A stretch of 52,216 bases of DNA, from positions 1 through 52,216 of the IMG/VR virus record IMGVR_UViG_3300025655_003190; one strand, given 5' to 3'. The notes below the pieces were generated by a model. That model was not told where the DNA came from, made no database searches, and saw only the letters and a program-made list of their open reading frames with translations. A program made the translations under genes and the position numbers. Below are positions 521-52,216 of the stretch, piece after piece (position 1 is the stretch's first letter; every line of letters begins with the position of its first letter). The stretch is from a virus.

Positions 521-1639
521 TTATGTAATTAGTGGCAACTCGTTAATACTTTTACATTTTCTAATAGCTATATCAGTATTACAAAAACAGCGTTGTAGCC
601 CACATATTGTTGGATTTTCTTGAAAAATTTTAGATTGATCTCGAATATGACCAATTTCCTTGCCATTTAAACAAAGTCCTCTGTATATTGATCCATCAAA
701 ATCAACGAAAATTGAATCTACACCAGCATAGCAGATCCAATTAGTAAAACTATGCAAATCTTTTGATACTAAATCATCAGTATTTAACTCTTGATAATTG
801 TAATCAATATCCCACAATCCACAATTTTGCCACGATGTCTTATGCCTTGACTCTATAAAGGCTAGTTCTTCATTATTATAATATGTAACCTGTTGACTGT
901 CAACATCATTTTTAAGTTTATAATCAAATTTTGTATTTTTTTGTTTATGTATATCTTTTAGAACTGCTTTTTTCTTAGATCCAACATATGGGGAAAGCTC
1001 GTCACCGACTGCAACTTGCGGAGTAATTCTTCTTATTACATATCGTACAGAATGTGTTTCTAGTATATTAATTATATGTTTAACTTGCTCCATCTTTCCA
1101 GGTAGGAACATTACATTTACATTAATGAACCCTTTTCCAAGTTTTTCTAATTCGCATATCTTTTTTATTGTGTCTAGAATTTCCTTATCTCTTCGTTCTA
1201 AATGAAGGCTAATTGTAACTCCATTTAGATACTCTAATGATTTTACATATGTTTCTAAAGGAAGACTACCATTAGAAATAGAATTTACTTGATAAGTAGT
1301 GCTTAAATTATTTAAATAGTCAAGTATTGTTAAAAAATTAGGATCAACAAACGGTTCTCCACCAGTAAATGCCCATTTAATTTTTTTGTTAGATTTTTGT
1401 ACTTCTGTGTTAATAACATTTATAAAATTTAACGAATCTTGCAAGTTTACAAATGGACTGACGAGATCGTGTACATGAGGACTGCAATAACTACAATCGT
1501 AATTACATCGTTTTCCTAGATTCCAAACAACTGTAAGAACATTTGGAACATTGTGCAATGCGTGATCTTCGCATTGCAACGAACGTACTGCAACTAAAGA
1601 TTCAATATTAAATTTTGCAAGAGTCACAATCTTCTTCAT
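521..1639 (-). CDS. Radical SAM protein between nrdA and nrdB
   Basis: Radical SAM enzyme of 372 residues. CNYDCSYC near residue 45 is the CxxxCxxC motif that binds the 4Fe-4S cluster, and TGGEPF near residue 93 is the SAM-binding GGE motif. The C-terminal third is Cys-rich (CYAGVDSIFVDFDG, then CGLQRCFC and a final CKS), resembling the auxiliary-cluster or SPASM-type tails of peptide- and protein-modifying members. The start overlaps the last 32 bases of nrdA in another frame, and nrdB follows 13 bases after the stop, so all three genes look co-transcribed. The substrate is unknown; proximity suggests, but does not prove, a link to the reductase. A start a few codons further in is possible. 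Confidence 0.85.
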   Translation of the reverse strand: MKKIVTLAKFNIESLVAVRSLQCEDHALHNVPNVLTVVWNLGKRCNYDCSYCSPHVHDLVSPFVNLQDSLNFINVINTEVQKSNKKIKWAFTGGEPFVDPNFLTILDYLNNLSTTYQVNSISNGSLPLETYVKSLEYLNGVTISLHLERRDKEILDTIKKICELEKLGKGFINVNVMFLPGKMEQVKHIINILETHSVRYVIRRITPQVAVGDELSPYVGSKKKAVLKDIHKQKNTKFDYKLKNDVDSQQVTYYNNEELAFIESRHKTSWQNCGLWDIDYNYQELNTDDLVSKDLHSFTNWICYAGVDSIFVDFDGSIYRGLCLNGKEIGHIRDQSKIFQENPTICGLQRCFCNTDIAIRKCKSINELPLIT

Positions 1640-3875
1640 CAGTTAATTTATTAACGTCAATTTCACCTTGTCCATCATAGGTATTAAAATAATATAATTG
1701 TTTACCGCCATACTTGTAGAACATCAAAATATGTTGTAACATTTCGCTCATTGGAATTTTTTCATCTTCATAAAACTGTGGGTTATACGAAGTATTTACA
1801 GAGATGCCCTGATCAATATACTTTTGCAAAACTGCCATAATCTTCAAATAACCCATTGGAGATTTCTGATCCCATAGTAGTTCATACTTGTTCTTTAAAT
1901 GACGGAATTCTGGAACCACTTGCTTGAGAACACCGTCTTTGGATTGTTTAACTGATACGTAGCTGCGTGGTGGTTCCACACCATTTGTAGCATTTGAAAT
2001 CTGTGCCGAAGTTTCAGCTGGCATCAGTGCCATTAGTGTACTGTTGCGAATTCCTGTTTCTTTTAATTGATCGCGTAGTGCTTGCCACGGGACCGCATCA
2101 AAGTGGGGAACAAGTTCATCAACATCTTGTTTGTATGTGTCTACAGGGAGAATGCCCTGTCCATATTTTGTTTCGTGTACTAGCGGGCAAGCACCTTTTT
2201 CTACTGCTAAGTCAGCACTTGCTTTAATAAGATAATATGACCAATGTTGGGCCCAATTATCAATTAGCTTCAAATCAGGATCAGAATAGTTAGTTCCTTG
2301 CTTGGCTAACCAATATGCTAGATTAATAATACCTACACCTAACGGACGACGTCCTTCTGTAGCAAGACGTGCTGCAAGAATGGGATAGTTCTGATAACTT
2401 AACAGATTATCTAGGCCACGTACTGCTAGTTCGCACGCACGCTGCATTTCTTCCGGATGCTTAAACGCACCCCAGTTAATAGCAGATAAAGTACATAGTG
2501 CAATCTCGCCGTTTTCGTCGTGGATATCATTTAGAGGTTTAGTTGGCAAATCAATTTCACAGCATAGGTTAGATTGTTTAACAGGTGCTACTGTAGGATC
2601 AAACGCACCGTGTGTGTTAGCATGATCTACGTTCATCAAATAAATGCGGCCTGTGTCTTTGCGCTCTTGTACAAACTGCGAAAACAAGTCCATTGCTTTA
2701 ATACGTTTACGACGAATATGTGTATTACGTTCTGCACGTTCATATAGCTCGCGGAACAAGTCTACATCTGAGAAGAATGCATCGTATACTTCAGGAACGT
2801 CATTAGGTGAAAATAGTGTGATGTAATCGTTGTTCAACAAGCGTTCATACATAACCTTATTAAACTGTACACCATAGTCCATATGACGTACACGATTATC
2901 GTCTGTGCCTTTGTTGTTCTTTAGAACTAACAAATCTTCAACTTCTAAATGCCAAATTGGATAATAAAGTGTGGCAGCACCATTGCGCACGCCGCCTTGC
3001 GAACAAGAGCGTGTTGCTGCTTGGAAAAGTTTATAAAAAGGTATCACACCTGTGTGATACGCATCGCCCTTACGAATAGGACTCTTAATAGCACGAATAC
3101 GTCCTGCGCCTACGCCAATCCCTGCTTTTTGCGAAACATACTTAACAATAGAACTTGTAGTTGCGTTAATTGAATCAAGGGAGTCATCCGTTTCAATCAG
3201 TACACAACTAGAGAATTGGCGTTGACTAGTACGTACACCTGCCATTACAGGTGTAGGTAAACTTACTTGGTGTGTAGAAATTGCATCATAATAATCTTTG
3301 ACCCAACGCATACGAGTGTCGCGTGGATGATCTGCAAATAATGTAGCAGCAATAAGTGCGTATGCTACTTGCGGTGTTTCATAAATTTGTTTAGTAACAC
3401 GATTTTGTACGAGGTACTTGCCGCGCATTTGTTCCATTGCGGCATATGTTAAATGCTCATCGCGCTCGTGCTTAATAAAAGAATTAATATAATCCCATTC
3501 TGCGTTATCGTATAGATCTGGTAATTCAGGATCATAGAGCCCGGATTTTACATTTTGCTCAACCAACTTGCGAATATGCCACGGCGTAAACGCACCGTAT
3601 ACTTCTTTGCGCAAGTGATAACAAATAAGTCTGCCAGCAACATACTGATAATTAGGAGTTTCTTCAGAGATTAAGTCTGCTGCTGCTTTAATTAATGTTT
3701 CTTGGATATCCGGTGTTGAAATACCTTGATAAAATTGTAAGTGACTTTTTAATTCTAATTCTGAAGCACTTACACCTGTAATGTTTTCGGTTGCCCAAAA
3801 TACAACCTTGTGCATTTTATCAAGGTCAAGAAGTTCCTTGCGCCCGTCGCGCTTGGTCACCGTAATATCGCTCAT
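1608..3875 (-). CDS. nrdA: Class Ia ribonucleotide reductase large subunit
   Basis: Alpha subunit, 755 residues, close to the length of E. coli NrdA. An N-terminal ATP-cone-like segment (ITVTKRDGRKELLDLDK) suggests allosteric control of overall activity. Active-site residues fall where expected: C224 in FSSCV and C461 in ALCTLSAI form the reducible pair. N436, C438 and E440 (NLCCE) provide the thiyl-radical Cys and its Asn/Glu partners. The C-terminal swivel tail ends CDSCKI (C750, C753). The motif around PAETSAQISNATNG is also typical. AGAGG sits 5 bases before the ATG. No intein interrupts it, although phage nrdA genes often carry one. Confidence 0.97.
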   Translation of the reverse strand: MSDITVTKRDGRKELLDLDKMHKVVFWATENITGVSASELELKSHLQFYQGISTPDIQETLIKAAADLISEETPNYQYVAGRLICYHLRKEVYGAFTPWHIRKLVEQNVKSGLYDPELPDLYDNAEWDYINSFIKHERDEHLTYAAMEQMRGKYLVQNRVTKQIYETPQVAYALIAATLFADHPRDTRMRWVKDYYDAISTHQVSLPTPVMAGVRTSQRQFSSCVLIETDDSLDSINATTSSIVKYVSQKAGIGVGAGRIRAIKSPIRKGDAYHTGVIPFYKLFQAATRSCSQGGVRNGAATLYYPIWHLEVEDLLVLKNNKGTDDNRVRHMDYGVQFNKVMYERLLNNDYITLFSPNDVPEVYDAFFSDVDLFRELYERAERNTHIRRKRIKAMDLFSQFVQERKDTGRIYLMNVDHANTHGAFDPTVAPVKQSNLCCEIDLPTKPLNDIHDENGEIALCTLSAINWGAFKHPEEMQRACELAVRGLDNLLSYQNYPILAARLATEGRRPLGVGIINLAYWLAKQGTNYSDPDLKLIDNWAQHWSYYLIKASADLAVEKGACPLVHETKYGQGILPVDTYKQDVDELVPHFDAVPWQALRDQLKETGIRNSTLMALMPAETSAQISNATNGVEPPRSYVSVKQSKDGVLKQVVPEFRHLKNKYELLWDQKSPMGYLKIMAVLQKYIDQGISVNTSYNPQFYEDEKIPMSEMLQHILMFYKYGGKQLYYFNTYDGQGEIDVNKLTDEEDCDSCKI

Positions 3876-24747: not shown

Positions 24748-26208
24748 CTATTTCCACTCGTACTTTTCTTGTGTAAACGGATAGTTTGCTTCTTTATAAA
24801 ACGCCTTGCGCTTAGTTAAATGTCGTTTGGCAAACTTACATGTTGAAGTTATGTCCCAGATTTGGACATGGTCTTTATCTTGTGCTTTTCGTATACCACG
24901 GCCAATGGACTGAATAACACGAACAAAAGACTTGCCAGGCTCAACAAGAACAAGATTGAAAATACGAGGAATATTAATGCCAACGGCAGCAACACCATAC
25001 GTTGCAACAATAATTTTATTGTCAGATTCTGAAATTTCATCATAATGCTCTTGTCTATCCTTTGCTTTTGTTGCACCACTTACAAATACTGCTCGGTCGC
25101 CTAAACGTTCTACTAAGTCAGTGCCGGCACTAACACGATCAACCAGCACAAGTGTATTACCTGACTCATTGATACTCTCGATCATTTGTGAGATAACGTT
25201 TAATCTATCTTGGTCACTTAACAAGAATTTAAGTTCTGCTTGGTAGTTGGTATGCTCTGCATGATCTTGTAACTGTACAATGTTAACGTGACAGTTGGCA
25301 AGTACACCCTTTTCTTGTAGTTCATTGGCAGCAATACGATTAATAACCGGGCCAATGCTTACATGCAATGCCTGAAACTCAAATAATTCCTTGGGGATGG
25401 TTCCGGTTAATCCCCAGCGTAGCGGAATCTTTGCCATTGGTCCTGTTAGTAGGGTTTTAAGTGCGTCTGCTTTTGCTTGATGCACTTCGTCGACAATAAC
25501 ACAAACAACATCCTCTAAAAACTCACCAATGGAAATAGGTGCTTGTTGATTACGTGTTGCTTTTAATAGCGAGTTGAGTGACTGCCACGTACAAATAGTA
25601 TGTGTCTTACCAAACTCTTTTCTATCACCGTAAAATACACCAACATCTAACTGCATGTTGATGTAATCCTTTTCGGTTTGTGTTACCAAACTTTTGTTGG
25701 GTACAATAACAATCGATCGTCCATACTGTTCAACACGCTGACTAAGAGCTGCTGTCATCAGTGTCTTACCGGCACCTGTAGCAATCTCCTGCAAGCTCTG
25801 TGGATTCTCCAGAAAGTTATTAACAACTTCAATTTGGTAATCACGTAATTCAATAGGCTGTCCTTCTGCTGGATGCCCTTTTGGCCAATGTACATGACCA
25901 AACGAATCTGTTTCTACACGTTCAAACTCAAACGAGGTGCGATAATCACGTTGATCGTCTAGAAGAATGTCATAGTTATTGTCTGCTAATACCGGAATGA
26001 TTTCCGGAAGCAAATTAACATAAGTGCTTCCGCCCATTTGAAAGAATGCTACTTTCCCATCCCAACGTCCTAGTCGCACTGCTGGCAAATAACGTGCGTG
26101 TGGTATTACATACTTAAACTGATTTACAAGTTTTTTTCGAATGTTAAGATCTAATCCTTCAATTTTAACATTCACTTCGTCTTTAATTACTAATTTTGCT
26201 CTAAGCAT
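24748..26208 (-). CDS. uvsW: UvsW-type recombination helicase
   Basis: A 486-residue SF2 helicase that remodels forks and recombination intermediates in T4-like phages. An N-terminal ~115-residue DNA-binding domain is followed by Walker A ATGAGKT (143-149), DEAH-box variant VDEVHQAK (~237-244), WGLTGTIP (motif III), VATYGVAAVGINIP (motif V) and QSIGRGIRKAQ (motif VI). The length and domain order match UvsW. It overlaps the hydroxylase-like gene by 8 bases and is the last gene of the operon from 29858. Confidence 0.93.
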   Translation of the reverse strand: MLRAKLVIKDEVNVKIEGLDLNIRKKLVNQFKYVIPHARYLPAVRLGRWDGKVAFFQMGGSTYVNLLPEIIPVLADNNYDILLDDQRDYRTSFEFERVETDSFGHVHWPKGHPAEGQPIELRDYQIEVVNNFLENPQSLQEIATGAGKTLMTAALSQRVEQYGRSIVIVPNKSLVTQTEKDYINMQLDVGVFYGDRKEFGKTHTICTWQSLNSLLKATRNQQAPISIGEFLEDVVCVIVDEVHQAKADALKTLLTGPMAKIPLRWGLTGTIPKELFEFQALHVSIGPVINRIAANELQEKGVLANCHVNIVQLQDHAEHTNYQAELKFLLSDQDRLNVISQMIESINESGNTLVLVDRVSAGTDLVERLGDRAVFVSGATKAKDRQEHYDEISESDNKIIVATYGVAAVGINIPRIFNLVLVEPGKSFVRVIQSIGRGIRKAQDKDHVQIWDITSTCKFAKRHLTKRKAFYKEANYPFTQEKYEWK

Positions 26209-43894: not shown

Positions 43895-44160
43895 TAGTAA
43901 GTATCGTTGTCGTCGTCGTAAAAACTGTATTCGTCTTCTTCGTCAATTTCGTCTTCGTATTCTGAATGATCTTCAACATACTCTAATAGACTTTTCTTTA
44001 CATTTGTATCTTGTGCAACTTCCATAAGTTCTTGGGCATCAAACCCATTTTCGACCAAAACTTGCACAAAATCGTCGGCTGCTGCCGAGAAGCCGCCGCT
44101 AATATGCGAACGCAATGCTTCCCAAATTTCCATTGCTAAATCAGGACTCATGTTCTTCAT
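43894..44160 (-). CDS. Small acidic protein between uvsX and uvsY
   Basis: An 88-residue protein. The N-terminal 55 residues are helical (DLAMEIWEALRSHISGGFSA). The tail is extremely acidic (EYEDEIDEEDEYSFYDDDND). The position between uvsX and uvsY is common in marine T4-like phages. An acidic tail might mimic DNA or contact UvsX; this is inference. AGGAG is near ATG 44160; ATG 44151 is an alternative start. Confidence 0.65.
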   Translation of the reverse strand: MKNMSPDLAMEIWEALRSHISGGFSAAADDFVQVLVENGFDAQELMEVAQDTNVKKSLLEYVEDHSEYEDEIDEEDEYSFYDDDNDTY

Positions 44161-45265
44161 TATCTCCTACTTCTAGAACGTCCGTATTAACATCTTCAAT
44201 GATGTCATCTGTTACGTTTGCTTCTTCGTTACTTATCTGTTCTTCAGCAAAAGCAAAATCTTGCATGAGCCTATCAAGAATCCCATCGTCGTTATTTTCC
44301 CAAGCCTTACGGAAAGCAAGTACTTCTTCACCTGTACTGCGTTCTACAAAACGTAGCCGATTGCCTTGCTTAGTAAGCAAACCTTTCTTTTCGGCTAAAT
44401 CAACCAGACCAGAATATGGATTCATGCCAGTTTCATACGGGATTTTAACTTGTACTGCTTCAAATGGTTTTGCATAGCGAGTCTTCATAACCTTACATGC
44501 AGCGCGAATACCATGTACGTCAGAAGTCTTATTACCATCCTCATCTTCTTTGAGCTTCAATTTACGCATTGCTACAACAATTGAAGATGCATAGATAAAG
44601 CCTTGACCGCCGCTAATCTTGTCATCTGGATCAAACATATCTTGCGAAGCGTATGTGTGGTTAGTTGCTACCAAGCCTACATTGTAAGCCCCGATCATGT
44701 TTACTGTGTTGCGCACAAGTGCAGTAAGTGCTTTAGGCTTACGACCCAAATCACCTTTCATATCGCCTTTTTCAAATTGATCAACATCCGTTGGAGTCAA
44801 CAACATGCCCAACGAATCGATGATAAACAACACCTTAGGACGTTCTTCGTCTGGCATTGATTTATAATCTTTCATAAACATCGAAATAGTTTTAGCAACG
44901 TCGTCAATCATGCTCATACTCAGTTTTAGCAGTTTATCTTCCGAGGTATCAACACCCAATGCGTGTAGCCACTGTTCATCAAGTGCGTTTTCTGAGTCAA
45001 TCATTACAACAAAAATACCTTGTTGCTGGGCGTGTTTAGCAATGTTGCCAGATACAAAGTATGATTTGCCTGCGCCCGATTCTCCTGCGAATACAGTAAC
45101 CTTGCCCATTGGCACACCTTTATGGAAATCGCCACTAATAAGGTAGTTTAGAGCATAGTTGCCTGTTGAAATCCAATCGGTTGGATCATTGAACCCAATG
45201 GATAGTCCGTCAATACTTTTTGTAATATCCTTCCGGAACTTACTTACATCAAATGGTTTAGCCAT
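44141..45265 (-). CDS. uvsX: UvsX RecA-like recombinase
   Basis: A 374-residue strand-exchange ATPase. Walker A GESGAGKS (61-68), Walker B KVLFIIDSLGMLL (~142-154), NHTYASQDMFDPDDKISGG (mobile L2-like loop) and GIRAACKVMKTRYAKPFEAV match RecA/UvsX. The C-terminal ~60 residues are acidic and helical. It has an extended -10 promoter and AAAGGA 7 bases before ATG. First gene of the operon uvsX, small acidic protein, uvsY, glycosyltransferase, methyltransferase. Confidence 0.95.
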   Translation of the reverse strand: MAKPFDVSKFRKDITKSIDGLSIGFNDPTDWISTGNYALNYLISGDFHKGVPMGKVTVFAGESGAGKSYFVSGNIAKHAQQQGIFVVMIDSENALDEQWLHALGVDTSEDKLLKLSMSMIDDVAKTISMFMKDYKSMPDEERPKVLFIIDSLGMLLTPTDVDQFEKGDMKGDLGRKPKALTALVRNTVNMIGAYNVGLVATNHTYASQDMFDPDDKISGGQGFIYASSIVVAMRKLKLKEDEDGNKTSDVHGIRAACKVMKTRYAKPFEAVQVKIPYETGMNPYSGLVDLAEKKGLLTKQGNRLRFVERSTGEEVLAFRKAWENNDDGILDRLMQDFAFAEEQISNEEANVTDDIIEDVNTDVLEVGDNEEHES

Positions 45266-46389: not shown

Positions 46390-47376
46390 TTATGAGGACT
46401 GCCGTGCGCGGATCATAGCAAGGATATCTTGTGCCTTGTCTGCGCCCGCTGCTGGCGCTGCTTCTACCTTAGGTTCTGCTGCTGGTGCAGGAGCAACGTT
46501 AGGTTCAAACGGAGGAGTAGTATCTTCTGCTACCGGCGCTGCCGTTTCTACCTTGGGTGCTGATTCTGGTGCCTTTGTTTCTGAATCACCAAAATTCATA
46601 CCAGCTGGTTTGAAATAAGACGCCCACTTGTCTGGATCGTATGCCTGGCCATCAACAGATGCTTCAAACATCTCTTGCATAACTTTCAGTTCAATATCGC
46701 CCGGCTTGTTAGGTAGGAAGGATTTGAGATCAAATAAGCCATACTTTTCAATCGCTTCCATTTCATCTGCAGAAAGTGCAGTTTCCTTACGAGCCCACGA
46801 CGAAGTGCTGTAATCAGCATACCCACCTTTAGTGGTCTTAATAATGCGGAAGTCAAGTCCATTGTTGTAATCAGTTGGCAATTCTTCCATATCTGGGTCC
46901 ATTAGTGAGGACTTAATAGTAGTAAAGATTTGCGGACTGATAATGAACCGACGAATTGGATTCTCAGGTGTCTTGTCATCTTCTAGTGGATTAGTGTGTA
47001 CAAAACCCTGGAACAAGTAACTACGCTTCTTCCAGTATTTACGGCCCATATCTTCAAGAGATGGATCCTTGAACCAAGTGCGAACTTCTGTCAAAATTGG
47101 ACACGTTTCATTCCACATTTCAACGCAGGGTACTGTCACAACAACCTGCTTGTTATCTCCGCCTACCACGCCGTTAAATGGCAAACGAATCATTTGGCGT
47201 TCAATCCAAAAGAATGGGTTGGAAGTGTCACCATCTGGAAGGAAGCGAACAGTTGCAGTATCCCCTTCGTTAATGTTCCAGTGTGGGTAAATGGCGTTGT
47301 CGCCTTGGAAAGTTGAACCACTAGCCTTGTTTTCTTGTGCTGCTAGTCGGGCACGAATATCTGCTAAAGATGCCAT
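46390..47376 (-). CDS. 32: Single-stranded DNA-binding protein gp32
   Basis: A 328-residue ssDNA-binding protein that coats replication intermediates and recruits UvsX, UvsY and helicase. The N-terminus (MASLADIRARLAAQENK) is the basic cooperativity region. The OB-fold core contains WNINEGDTATVRFLPDG, MGRKYWKKRSYLFQGFVHTN and NPIRRFIISPQIF. The tail is Ala/Pro/Glu-rich and ends in a short amphipathic helix (KAQDILAMIRARQSS). The T4 zinc cluster (one His, three Cys) is not preserved; only two Cys (VPCVEMWNETCPI) remain. A strong promoter, a ~100-base leader with repeats, and AGGAG before ATG suggest translational control. Confidence 0.92.
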   Translation of the reverse strand: MASLADIRARLAAQENKASGSTFQGDNAIYPHWNINEGDTATVRFLPDGDTSNPFFWIERQMIRLPFNGVVGGDNKQVVVTVPCVEMWNETCPILTEVRTWFKDPSLEDMGRKYWKKRSYLFQGFVHTNPLEDDKTPENPIRRFIISPQIFTTIKSSLMDPDMEELPTDYNNGLDFRIIKTTKGGYADYSTSSWARKETALSADEMEAIEKYGLFDLKSFLPNKPGDIELKVMQEMFEASVDGQAYDPDKWASYFKPAGMNFGDSETKAPESAPKVETAAPVAEDTTPPFEPNVAPAPAAEPKVEAAPAAGADKAQDILAMIRARQSS

Positions 47377-50873: not shown

Positions 50874-51950
50874 TCAAAACATTATAAATGGCATTGGCTC
50901 AATTACTTCGTCACCAAAGTCTTTGATTTGATCGTTTAGATCAGCATGATAGTTTTGTAGCACCTGCATCATACGCACAGCAAGAACTGTAGCCATTACT
51001 AAGTCATCAGTTTCTCCGATCTTAGCAGCATAACTCGTTCCGTGCGCTACAAACGTTTTAAATTCAGATATTAAACTTTTAGAGTTCACAGTCATTTTCT
51101 TAGTTTCAACTAAGTTTTTAAGTTTAGCACAAGCACTTAACTTAGATTTATTTGTTGTATTAAATCCTTTACGTATGCGCATACCAGCAGAACGATTCAT
51201 TTTAGGTTCTGACAGCATCATTCCTGGAAAGTTATCCTCACCAAACTCTGCTAAACTAATGAGTGCTGCTTCACCAATGGTGTTGTTTTCAATTGAGTAA
51301 TAAATGCTTGTAGCATCTTGTGTTTTGTCGTAAATTGTTTTTACAATATCGTTTAGAATACGTATTTGTGTAGGAATAGGGGTTTTATTGTGTTTCCACT
51401 CTGCTACTTGTATTGTTGTGTTTGCTTCAAACACCTGGATAGCAGCAGGGTCACCACCTGTACCTAAACTAGGATCAAGTGCTACTACATAAAATTTATT
51501 TGCTTGCGGTTCTTTGTACCAGCGTACTTGTCCTGTTTTGTACAATGGTTCGACTCCTTCCATATCTACCAGTGTTGTAGCATTAATAAGAGTCTCGTCG
51601 TTGATGATGAATTCGCAATTTGAAACTAAAAGATTGTTAGCATAAAATCTATGATTATTCTCAACTTCTACAAGATCGTAAACAGGTTCGTCTGGACAAA
51701 CGTTTATGCTAATTATAGTCGCAACGTCGTTGTTAGCTATAATTTTATCACCAATTGATAAATTTTTAGCAGCAACCTTATTAAGGTGAGAATCAAAAAA
51801 GTTATGGTCGGGTGTAGACTTAATTTCTCCACATGACGTTATTATATTAATTACTTCTTTAGAACCTTTATTAATAATGCCAGCGAAATTGCTCCACCCT
51901 GTATCAGTTAAAACCTGAATTCCTTTATTATTTTTTAATAATTCTGCCAC
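50874..51950 (-). CDS. 17: Terminase large subunit C-terminal half with N-terminal C-intein
   Basis: A 358-residue protein in two parts. Residues 1-111 are a C-intein; 112-358 are the nuclease domain of TerL, the DNA-packaging motor that cuts concatemers. NKFYVVALDPSLGTGGDP carries the first catalytic Asp, IYYSIENNTIGEAAL a Glu, and GETDDLVMATVLAVRM the last Asp, an RNase-H-like triad. The extein starts CEFIINDETLI, the TerL CEF segment. GTG 51950 has AGAAGGA at 7 bases, and a TGA (52017-52019) closes the frame upstream. The ATPase half of TerL is therefore encoded elsewhere, beyond the window edge. Confidence 0.82.
   Translation of the reverse strand: MAELLKNNKGIQVLTDTGWSNFAGIINKGSKEVINIITSCGEIKSTPDHNFFDSHLNKVAAKNLSIGDKIIANNDVATIISINVCPDEPVYDLVEVENNHRFYANNLLVSNCEFIINDETLINATTLVDMEGVEPLYKTGQVRWYKEPQANKFYVVALDPSLGTGGDPAAIQVFEANTTIQVAEWKHNKTPIPTQIRILNDIVKTIYDKTQDATSIYYSIENNTIGEAALISLAEFGEDNFPGMMLSEPKMNRSAGMRIRKGFNTTNKSKLSACAKLKNLVETKKMTVNSKSLISEFKTFVAHGTSYAAKIGETDDLVMATVLAVRMMQVLQNYHADLNDQIKDFGDEVIEPMPFIMF
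51618..51950 (-). other. C-intein segment of TerL (atypically split type)
   Basis: 111 residues from GTG 51950 to the Asn before Cys+1. IQVLTDTGWSNFAGI is the block A-like second strand. GEIKSTPDHNFFD carries block B (TPDH, residues 46-49). VYDLVEVENNHRFYANN is block F with its His, and NLLVSN-C is block G. The penultimate residue is Ser where inteins normally have His. The AceL-TerL split intein has a ~25-residue N-part and ~104-residue C-part at the same kind of host protein; the size and order here match. Confidence 0.75.
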
Positions 51951-52215
51951 GGACAAATCCTTCTGGGACTTTGCCGTCCCTAAATTGTTTTGATACAACA
52001 CCGTTGTTATACCATTTCATTCCACGCTTTCCAATCTGTTTTCTTGGTTTTCTTCCTTTAACAAATCCATCTGGACACTCAAACGCATAAGTTTCGGTTT
52101 CACCATTATTAAACCAGGACTTTCCTGCTGCGGCACCAATTTTACCTTTGTGGGCTGCGCTAATTTTCTTGTTGCGTTCTGGGTCCTGTGTAAAATCATA
52201 AAATCCTTCTTTTTC
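51928..52215 (-). CDS. Homing-endonuclease-like protein (partial, C-terminal end)
   Basis: The last 95 residues of an ORF running off the right edge and ending in TAA at 51928-51930, 23 bases inside the C-intein gene in another frame. NKKISAAHKGKIGAAAGKS resembles the NUMOD3 DNA-binding motif. Two similar units follow: KSWFNNGETETYAFECPDGF with KGRKPR, and KWYNNGVVSKQFRDGKVPEG with FVRGR. Such W-x-NNG ... PEGFxxGR repeats are known at the ends of phage HNH/GIY-YIG endonucleases. The catalytic domain is outside the window. Confidence 0.65.
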   Translation of the reverse strand, partial: EKEGFYDFTQDPERNKKISAAHKGKIGAAAGKSWFNNGETETYAFECPDGFVKGRKPRKQIGKRGMKWYNNGVVSKQFRDGKVPEGFVRGRIIKK

Positions 52216-52216
52216 T

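What the first reader, a model, noticed from the sequence alone, without database searches (positions are those of the whole stretch)
51618..52019. Naturally split intein in terminase (TerL) with the C-half starting its own gene
Seen: the TerL nuclease half is preceded by 111 residues with intein blocks B (TPDH), F (NHRFYANN) and G (LLVSN followed by Cys). Its frame is closed by TGA at 52017-52019, and GTG 51950 has a good AGAAGGA site. Known: AceL-TerL is an atypically split intein with a short N-part and ~100-residue C-part in TerL. Inference: the N-half of TerL plus a ~25-residue N-intein lies just past the window edge and the two join by trans-splicing.
Basis: partly seen in the sequence, partly recalled or inferred. 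Interest (0 to 1): 0.9.

Follow-up and report, generated by a model that had tools for sequence, protein, structure and literature searches.

The report
Phage terminase fractured by homing endonuclease
In this virus the DNA-packaging motor gene is cut in two by a parasitic nuclease gene, and a split intein should join the two protein pieces; relatives show that the nuclease gene itself carries the start signal for the second piece, and that some phages later deleted it and rejoined the intein, leaving a recognisable scar.

Summary
Window 50874-51950 (minus strand) encodes a 111-aa C-intein fused to the TerL nuclease half. The N-half, missing from this fragment, is on contig L002, which is 100% identical over all 1,340 shared terL-locus bases. 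It ends FRREMD|C... with a 31-aa N-intein and a stop. Closest known kind: AceL/GOS/Cat-TerL atypically split inteins.

Its tail, PEGFVRGRIIKK, encodes in a second frame the Shine-Dalgarno and GTG start of the C-piece. Among 75 distinct C-inteins at this site, 65 have the tail; 62 keep ATG/GTG exactly there, and the other 3 share an in-frame ATG 12 nt upstream. Internal copies of the same motif have a start in 1/28. HNH, GIY-YIG-like and DUF7487 genes all occupy the position. Five contiguous inteins carry an out-of-frame scar of the tail, forcing at least five independent HEG losses with re-fusion. Four loci have TerL in three pieces with a second atypical split intein at Walker B.

Trans-splicing, endonuclease activity and start-site use are inferred from sequence, not measured.

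The parts
50877..51617 (-). TerL C-extein (RNase-H-like nuclease half), begins Cys+1 (CEFIINDETL); stop codon at 50874-50876
   Evidence: Terminase_6C E 9.6e-7 above cut-off; T4/RB49 gp17 nuclease structures E 1e-11 to 1e-14
51618..51950 (-). C-intein (111 aa), blocks B, F and G; ends LLVSN
   Evidence: aligned with 74 other distinct C-inteins at the same site
51948..51950 (-). GTG start codon of the C-piece, inside the HEG reading frame (CGT GGC = Arg-Gly of PEGFVRGR)
   Evidence: ATG/GTG kept here in 62/65 tails versus a start in 1/28 internal copies of the motif
51958..51964 (-). Shine-Dalgarno AGAAGGA of the C-piece, encoding part of PEG in the HEG frame
   Evidence: 51/55 tails versus 15/28 internal copies
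51931..52216 (-). 3' part of the homing endonuclease gene (95 codons in the window; 209 aa from the ATG in L002); stop 51928-51930; continues past the window edge
   Evidence: NUMOD3 E 5e-6 above cut-off and HNH E 0.001 just below cut-off on the full protein; nuclease domain similar to MobE-type HNH genes
51931..51966 (-). HEG terminal tail PEGFVRGRIIKK, overlapping the start of the C-piece in the +1 frame
52051..52077 (-). internal copy of the tail motif (CPDGFVKGR) used as a non-overlapping control

Best explanation
The terL gene of this T4-related phage is a fractured gene. TerL-N ends in a 31-aa N-intein. A homing endonuclease gene follows. TerL-C begins with a 111-aa C-intein translated from a GTG that lies, with its Shine-Dalgarno, inside the HEG's conserved C-terminal tail. 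The two intein pieces should associate, form a HINT fold and ligate the exteins, giving FRREMD-CEFIINDETL and an intact terminase. The HEG lies in a loop of the intein at the atypical split position, not at the usual endonuclease position. Because its tail supplies ribosome site and start codon, HEG insertion there could turn one intein gene into two translated cistrons in a single step. HEG and intein would spread together by homing, and catalytic domains are exchanged on a constant tail. Later the HEG can be lost, leaving a two-gene split intein or a re-fused contiguous intein with a frame-shifted tail scar. SHOWN by sequence: the anatomy, the conserved start and SD, the nuclease variety, the scars, the patchy distribution and the identical tract. 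INFERRED: translation from that GTG, trans-splicing, endonuclease cutting and homing, and the order of events.
For: N-half with N-intein on L002, 100% identical to the window over the shared 1,340 bp. Cys1 39/39, Cys+1 65/65, C-terminal Asn 65/65, block B TxxH 63/65. Nearest PDB sequence is CatC, an atypical TerL split intein. AlphaFold model of the contiguous relative L009: pLDDT 93.7, pTM 0.86, best PDB fold VidaL 6VGV (an atypically split intein, recalled), TM 0.84; the scar lies in the least confident stretch, a loop. Start codon in the tail: 55/55 in the first set versus 1/28 internal copies (Fisher 5e-21); SD 51/55 versus 15/28 (7e-5). Union of all scans 62/65; the 3 exceptions share an in-frame ATG 12 nt upstream. 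HEG-less splits L020, L117, L132 and L168 keep the tail; L026 keeps a DUF7487-like end. Contiguous L009, L135, L140, L173 and L180 keep an out-of-frame tail, five changes forced by starred branches. The window clade of TerL is otherwise intein-free, and intein presence needs 11 changes, at least 7 forced. Window and L002 are identical around the element but 65-86% identical and rearranged elsewhere.
Against: No splicing, translation or cleavage data. The usual penultimate His is absent from the whole family (SN 50, KN 14, AN 1). The window itself ends before the N-half; the N-half is read from a second, related genome. Counts over related sequences are not independent, so Fisher p-values overstate. 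Both contigs end near the locus, so a chimeric assembly in the shared part is not fully excluded, although identity falls off gradually over about 6 kb.
Confidence: 0.82

Rival explanations
1. The halves do not splice; TerL works as two non-covalently assembled chains, as NrdA of phage Aeh1 does after MobE insertion, and the intein pieces are inert tails.
For: Precedent: mobE-split nrdA gives a fully active enzyme without an intein (PMC2988022). The HEG here has a MobE-like HNH domain. Penultimate His is missing.
Against: Cys1, Cys+1, C-terminal Asn and block B are kept across 65 divergent loci, which inert tails would not need. The intein also exists as a contiguous form, where only splicing would give a normal TerL. 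Related AceL-, GOS- and Cat-TerL inteins splice (PMC11766414).
Confidence: 0.1
2. Decaying gene: the HEG broke terL and the fragment is a relic, with another terL elsewhere.
For: Both records are fragments, so another terL cannot be excluded.
Against: No second terL in the window or in 38 kb of the L002 contig. The reading frames, start codon and catalytic residues are conserved over dozens of lineages.
Confidence: 0.04
3. Reverse order for the scar: the KDxxVEELxKNN segment is old intein sequence in contiguous inteins, and the HEG reading frame later ran into it (overprinting), so no re-fusion took place.
For: The last codons of the HEG (GRxxKK-stop) do lie over a segment similar to the intein's own ELxxNN stretch, and that stretch is present on both sides of the HEG.
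Against: The PEGFxxGR motif with its W(Y/F)NNG lead occurs in HEGs of many unrelated phages at other sites, so it is HEG-derived. Contiguous L019, L022 and L029 lack it. L180 keeps about 22 out-of-frame tail residues (NNKQFKDGTQPEGFTRGRIRKK). Scarred cis inteins fall at five separate places among split ones.
Confidence: 0.1
4. The two frames are joined at RNA level (group I or II intron) or by frameshifting rather than by protein splicing.
For: Introns interrupt terL in phage ICP1 (PMC10448857).
Against: Rfam finds no intron here: the only hit at E<1 is far below its family's cut-off, on the other strand. Intein blocks flank the gap. RNA splicing could not remove an intein that is needed in frame for the C-half.
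Confidence: 0.02

Closest known systems
AceL-TerL / GOS-TerL / Cat-TerL atypically split inteins
   Same: Host protein TerL; short N-intein and about 100-115-aa C-intein; nucleophile pattern Cys1/Cys+1 as in AceL and Cat. AceL is 25+104, GOS 37+115 and Cat 30+104 (PMC11766414); here 31+111. CatC is the nearest PDB sequence.
   Different: Only about one quarter to one third of residues shared with CatC in the alignment. No penultimate His. A HEG with an embedded C-piece start lies between the halves, and contiguous and re-fused relatives exist. Whether AceL or GOS loci have such a HEG could not be checked (primary papers not held).
Fractured genes of Dassa et al. 2009 (split inteins with a HEG between the halves)
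   Same: A free-standing HEG between the two halves of an essential phage gene whose products carry complementary split inteins.
   Different: As recalled, those are split at the usual endonuclease position and use a different HEG family. Here the split is atypical, several HEG classes alternate, and the tail holds the start codon. The paper itself is not in the library, so this comparison rests on memory and on citing papers.
MobE-split nrdA of phage Aeh1 (genes in pieces)
   Same: HNH HEG of the MobE type inserted into an essential gene, making two polypeptides (PMC2988022).
   Different: No intein there; the two chains assemble non-covalently.
Split PolB intein with HNH HEG in Pseudomonas phage MIJ3
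   Same: Split intein halves with an HNH HEG gene between them in a jumbo phage (PMC6892783).
   Different: PolB, with N-part blocks A to N4 (usual split position); no embedded start or re-fusion reported.
Serratia phage 92A1 terL (OR088902)
   Same: Isolated phage with terL split as TerL-N+IntN / GIY-YIG-like ORF / IntC+TerL-C, the C-piece start overlapping the HEG end.
   Different: Different HEG without the PEGF tail; insertion one residue away; C-intein ends THN with His; the middle and C ORFs are annotated hypothetical.

Membership tests
Atypically split TerL intein (AceL/GOS/Cat-TerL kind) | Host protein is the large terminase, split near the ATPase/nuclease junction | tested here: met
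Atypically split TerL intein (AceL/GOS/Cat-TerL kind) | Short N-intein (25-37 aa) on a separate polypeptide | tested here: met
   31 aa followed by stop in L002; 30-37 aa in all other splits except L117, whose N-piece runs on into the HEG tail
Atypically split TerL intein (AceL/GOS/Cat-TerL kind) | C-intein of about 100-115 aa with its own start | tested here: met
   111 aa, GTG with Shine-Dalgarno
Atypically split TerL intein (AceL/GOS/Cat-TerL kind) | Sequence kinship to Cat-TerL | tested here: met
   6DSL CatC best PDB hit, E 7.7e-5; the N-intein alone is too short to give a hit
Atypically split TerL intein (AceL/GOS/Cat-TerL kind) | Trans-splicing activity | not testable with these tools
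   needs co-expression
HINT-fold intein | Cys/Ser1, block B TxxH, C-terminal Asn, Cys/Ser/Thr+1 | tested here: met
HINT-fold intein | Penultimate His of block G (usual, not universal) | tested here: not met
   Ser/Lys/Ala in 65/65; known to be dispensable in some inteins (recalled)
HINT-fold intein | Fold | tested here: met
   model of contiguous relative L009, TM 0.84 to VidaL; the window's own two pieces were not folded together
Fractured gene (split intein + HEG between halves) | HEG between the two half genes | tested here: met
Fractured gene (split intein + HEG between halves) | Endonuclease active and homing | not testable with these tools
   indirect: patchy distribution and identical tract
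MobE-type HNH homing endonuclease | HNH nuclease domain similar to MobE | tested here: met
   residues 3-83 align with annotated mobE genes at about 40%; Pfam HNH 19.5 bits, just below the 21.4 cut-off

The most novel reading that the evidence does not exclude
Atypically split inteins are made by homing endonuclease genes that bring their own downstream start: the HEG's tail doubles as ribosome-binding site and start codon for the C-piece, nucleases of different classes are exchanged on this tail, and the split can be reversed, with at least five independent re-fusions leaving a frame-shifted tail scar. The split-intein state is thus a reversible phase in a mobile element's life, not an end point.
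Probability: 0.65. Interest if true: 0.75.

Novelty: new variant of a known kind. Interest (0 to 1): 0.62.

Why it matters
How natural split inteins arise, and why some are split at the atypical N-terminal position prized for protein labelling, is an open question. This locus gives a graded series at one site in one gene: empty, contiguous, split by three or more kinds of nuclease gene, split with the nuclease lost, and re-fused with a scar. It suggests a concrete mechanism, a nuclease gene whose tail is also a translation start, that explains how a gene can be broken without loss of its second half. It also yields about 65 new natural atypical TerL intein sequences, a set of three-piece terminases with two split inteins in one protein, and an isolated phage (Serratia phage 92A1) with a comparable layout for experiments.

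Tried and rejected
RNA splicing: Rfam search of the locus gave nothing meaningful. A second, intact terL: none in the window or the 38 kb of L002 read. N-intein alone against PDB: no hit, too short. Generality of the start-bearing tail: searched other HEG tails in viral contigs. Clear terminal copies elsewhere (L242, L244, L250, L254-L256) and nearly all internal copies lack the start, so it is specific to this site and not a property of the motif. First thought that the HEG tail-like end 'GRxxKK' was wholly HEG-derived; the nucleotide comparison shows its last codons lie over an intein stretch present on both sides of the insert, so only the PEGFxX part is counted as the scar. L029 was first read as an ancestral empty intein; the short repeats flanking the insert in L024 could also delete it precisely, so scarless contiguous inteins are not used to fix the direction of change. 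Dassa et al. 2009 could not be read. The L002 contig was first taken as the same genome; it is a different phage.

Full report
CHECK OF THE OBSERVATION. Pfam Terminase_6C matches above its cut-off; the intein model matches at 1.4e-5 but below its cut-off, as it sees only part of the domain. The best PDB match of the C-intein is CatC, the engineered consensus of atypically split TerL inteins (6DSL, E 7.7e-5). The whole record is a 52,216-base viral fragment, so what lies right of 52216 cannot be read in it.

THE MISSING HALF. A scan of viral contigs brought L002 (IMGVR_UViG_3300025687_000084), which is 100% identical to the window over 1,340 bp and reaches 595 bp further. It holds the end of TerL-N...ERGRIGEERFRREMD, then CITGDSKITIKMPNGDIREVSMLELEKMLSL and a stop. 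This is a 31-aa N-intein, within the 25-37 aa range given for AceL-, Cat- and GOS-TerL (PMC11766414). Joining FRREMD to CEFIINDETL gives the sequence context of intein-free relatives (FRREHECEFIINDETL). There is no other terL in the window or in 38 kb of L002's contig.

WHAT LIES BETWEEN. Between the halves is a gene of 209 codons (from the first ATG) for an HNH protein with a NUMOD3 motif, whose first 80 residues resemble annotated mobE homing endonucleases. MobE is the enzyme that splits nrdA in phage Aeh1 (PMC2988022). The window holds its last 95 codons. Its C-terminal part has two copies of a W(Y/F)NNG...P(E/D)GFxxGR motif. The last copy, PEGFVRGRIIKK-stop, overlaps the C-piece: GAAGGA (Glu-Gly) is the Shine-Dalgarno, and the GTG start lies across CGT GGC (Arg-Gly) in the +1 frame.

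THE EMBEDDED START IS CONSERVED. Scans with C-intein and tail alignments gave 75 distinct C-inteins at this exact TerL site. In the first set, 55 had the tail: all 55 keep ATG or GTG at this place and 51 keep a Shine-Dalgarno-like core, against 1 of 28 and 15 of 28 in internal copies of the same motif in the same genes (Fisher 5e-21 and 7e-5). The residue at that position is usually Lys in internal copies but is Arg, Ser, His, Asn, Cys or Tyr in the tail: all have codons ending in purine-T, which is what a start in the next frame demands. Over all scans 62 of 65 keep it; the three exceptions, one related group, share an in-frame ATG 12 nt upstream. Clear HEG tails found elsewhere do not carry it. 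Sequences are related, so the p-values overstate, but the pattern spans HEGs of several classes. That the ribosome uses this start is an inference.

ONE SITE, MANY STATES. At the same TerL position there are: empty genes; contiguous inteins without a scar (L019, L022, L029); splits with a short HNH gene (window, L002, L012, L031 and others), a longer HNH gene (L011, L087, L133, L154, L183) or a GIY-YIG-like gene (L151, Pfam LEM-3 GIY-YIG; L163, L169 and others carry a similar GxYVYAYxRxDGTPYYIGKG start but gave no Pfam hit), all with the same tail; splits with a DUF7487 gene and no such tail (L024, L164, L181, L182); splits whose nuclease is gone but whose tail remains (L020, L132, L168, and L117, where the N-intein runs in frame into the tail), or with a DUF7487-like end (L026); and contiguous inteins that carry the tail out of frame (L009, L135, L140, L173, L180). 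In L180 about 22 tail residues can still be read in the other frame. On the C-intein tree the five scarred contiguous inteins are five separate changes, all forced by well-supported branches. The tree has few columns, so exact neighbours are uncertain.

MOBILITY. On the TerL tree intein presence needs 11 changes, at least 7 forced, and the window/L002 TerL lies within a clade whose nearest members (L003, 93% identical, and others) are intein-free. L009 and L026 have almost the same TerL exteins but far-apart inteins. L002 and the window are 100% identical over the shared 1,340 bp and stay near that for a few hundred bases more, then fall to about 94% and then 80-90% over the next 4-5 kb; the rest of their backbones is 65-86% identical and rearranged. 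This is what a recent conversion around a homing element would leave. Contig-end chimerism is a less likely alternative, since identity fades gradually.

FOLD AND CHEMISTRY. Over 65 loci Cys+1 and C-terminal Asn are invariant, Cys1 is present in all 39 N-pieces read by the motif search and block B TxxH in 63; the penultimate residue is Ser, Lys or Ala, never His. AlphaFold on the contiguous, scarred L009 intein gives pLDDT 93.7 and pTM 0.86, with the lowest confidence in the stretch holding the scar; the best solved fold is VidaL (TM 0.84). The HEG therefore sits in a permissive loop. The absent penultimate His is the main chemical caution.

THREE-PIECE TERMINASES. In L011, L014, L132 and L139 a second intein of the same general type interrupts the Walker B site (LLY|CDEF) and is also split after about 42-60 residues, so TerL is encoded in three pieces with two split inteins. 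In L116/L117 the second site is contiguous while the first is split; in L029 the reverse.

COMPARISON AND VERDICT. By anatomy it is a member of the AceL/GOS/Cat-TerL kind of atypically split intein, arranged as a fractured gene as named by Dassa et al. 2009 (known here only through citing papers and memory; not held). Splicing, cutting and start use are untested here.

Noticed in passing
L011:1082-4442, L014:3186-7071, L132:2454-5089, L139:1039-onward: TerL in three pieces: a second atypically split intein at the Walker B site (LLY|CDEF) plus the one at FRRE|CEF; C-intein at the second site ends in TKN or SHQ. In L132 neither gap holds a nuclease gene.
   Followed up: partly
L188:3142-6104 (Serratia phage 92A1, OR088902): Cultured cheese-rind phage with terL split by a GIY-YIG-like gene and intein halves; the middle and C ORFs are annotated hypothetical and the N-half is annotated as the whole terminase.
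   Followed up: partly
L009:1722-3720 and L026:5016-7080: TerL C-exteins nearly identical, inteins far apart on the tree: intein replacement at one site in one TerL background.
   Followed up: partly
L024:4953-6020, L164:2929-4011, L181, L182: DUF7487 (PF24308), a Pfam family of unknown function, sits in the same place as the HNH and GIY-YIG nucleases, which suggests that it is a homing endonuclease family.
   Followed up: partly
L014:3186-3848 and L081:1240-2247: A short stretch ending in DEFAFV (the uninterrupted Walker B extein sequence) is kept next to the insertion at the second site, perhaps a remnant of the target.
   Followed up: no
Campylobacter phages CP30A, NCTC12673, PC14 and about 40 others; Salicola phage SCTP-2 217736-218077: C-intein-like match inside terminase genes of cultured phages (Campylobacter 38% identity, E about 5e-9), not examined further.
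   Followed up: no
L032:6785-7318: A related HNH HEG lies just downstream of an intein-free terL.
   Followed up: no
window 1611-3875, 24751-26208, 44144-45265, 46393-47376: Genes for NrdA-like ribonucleotide reductase, DNA helicase, UvsX-like recombinase and single-strand DNA-binding protein: a T4-related phage.
   Followed up: partly
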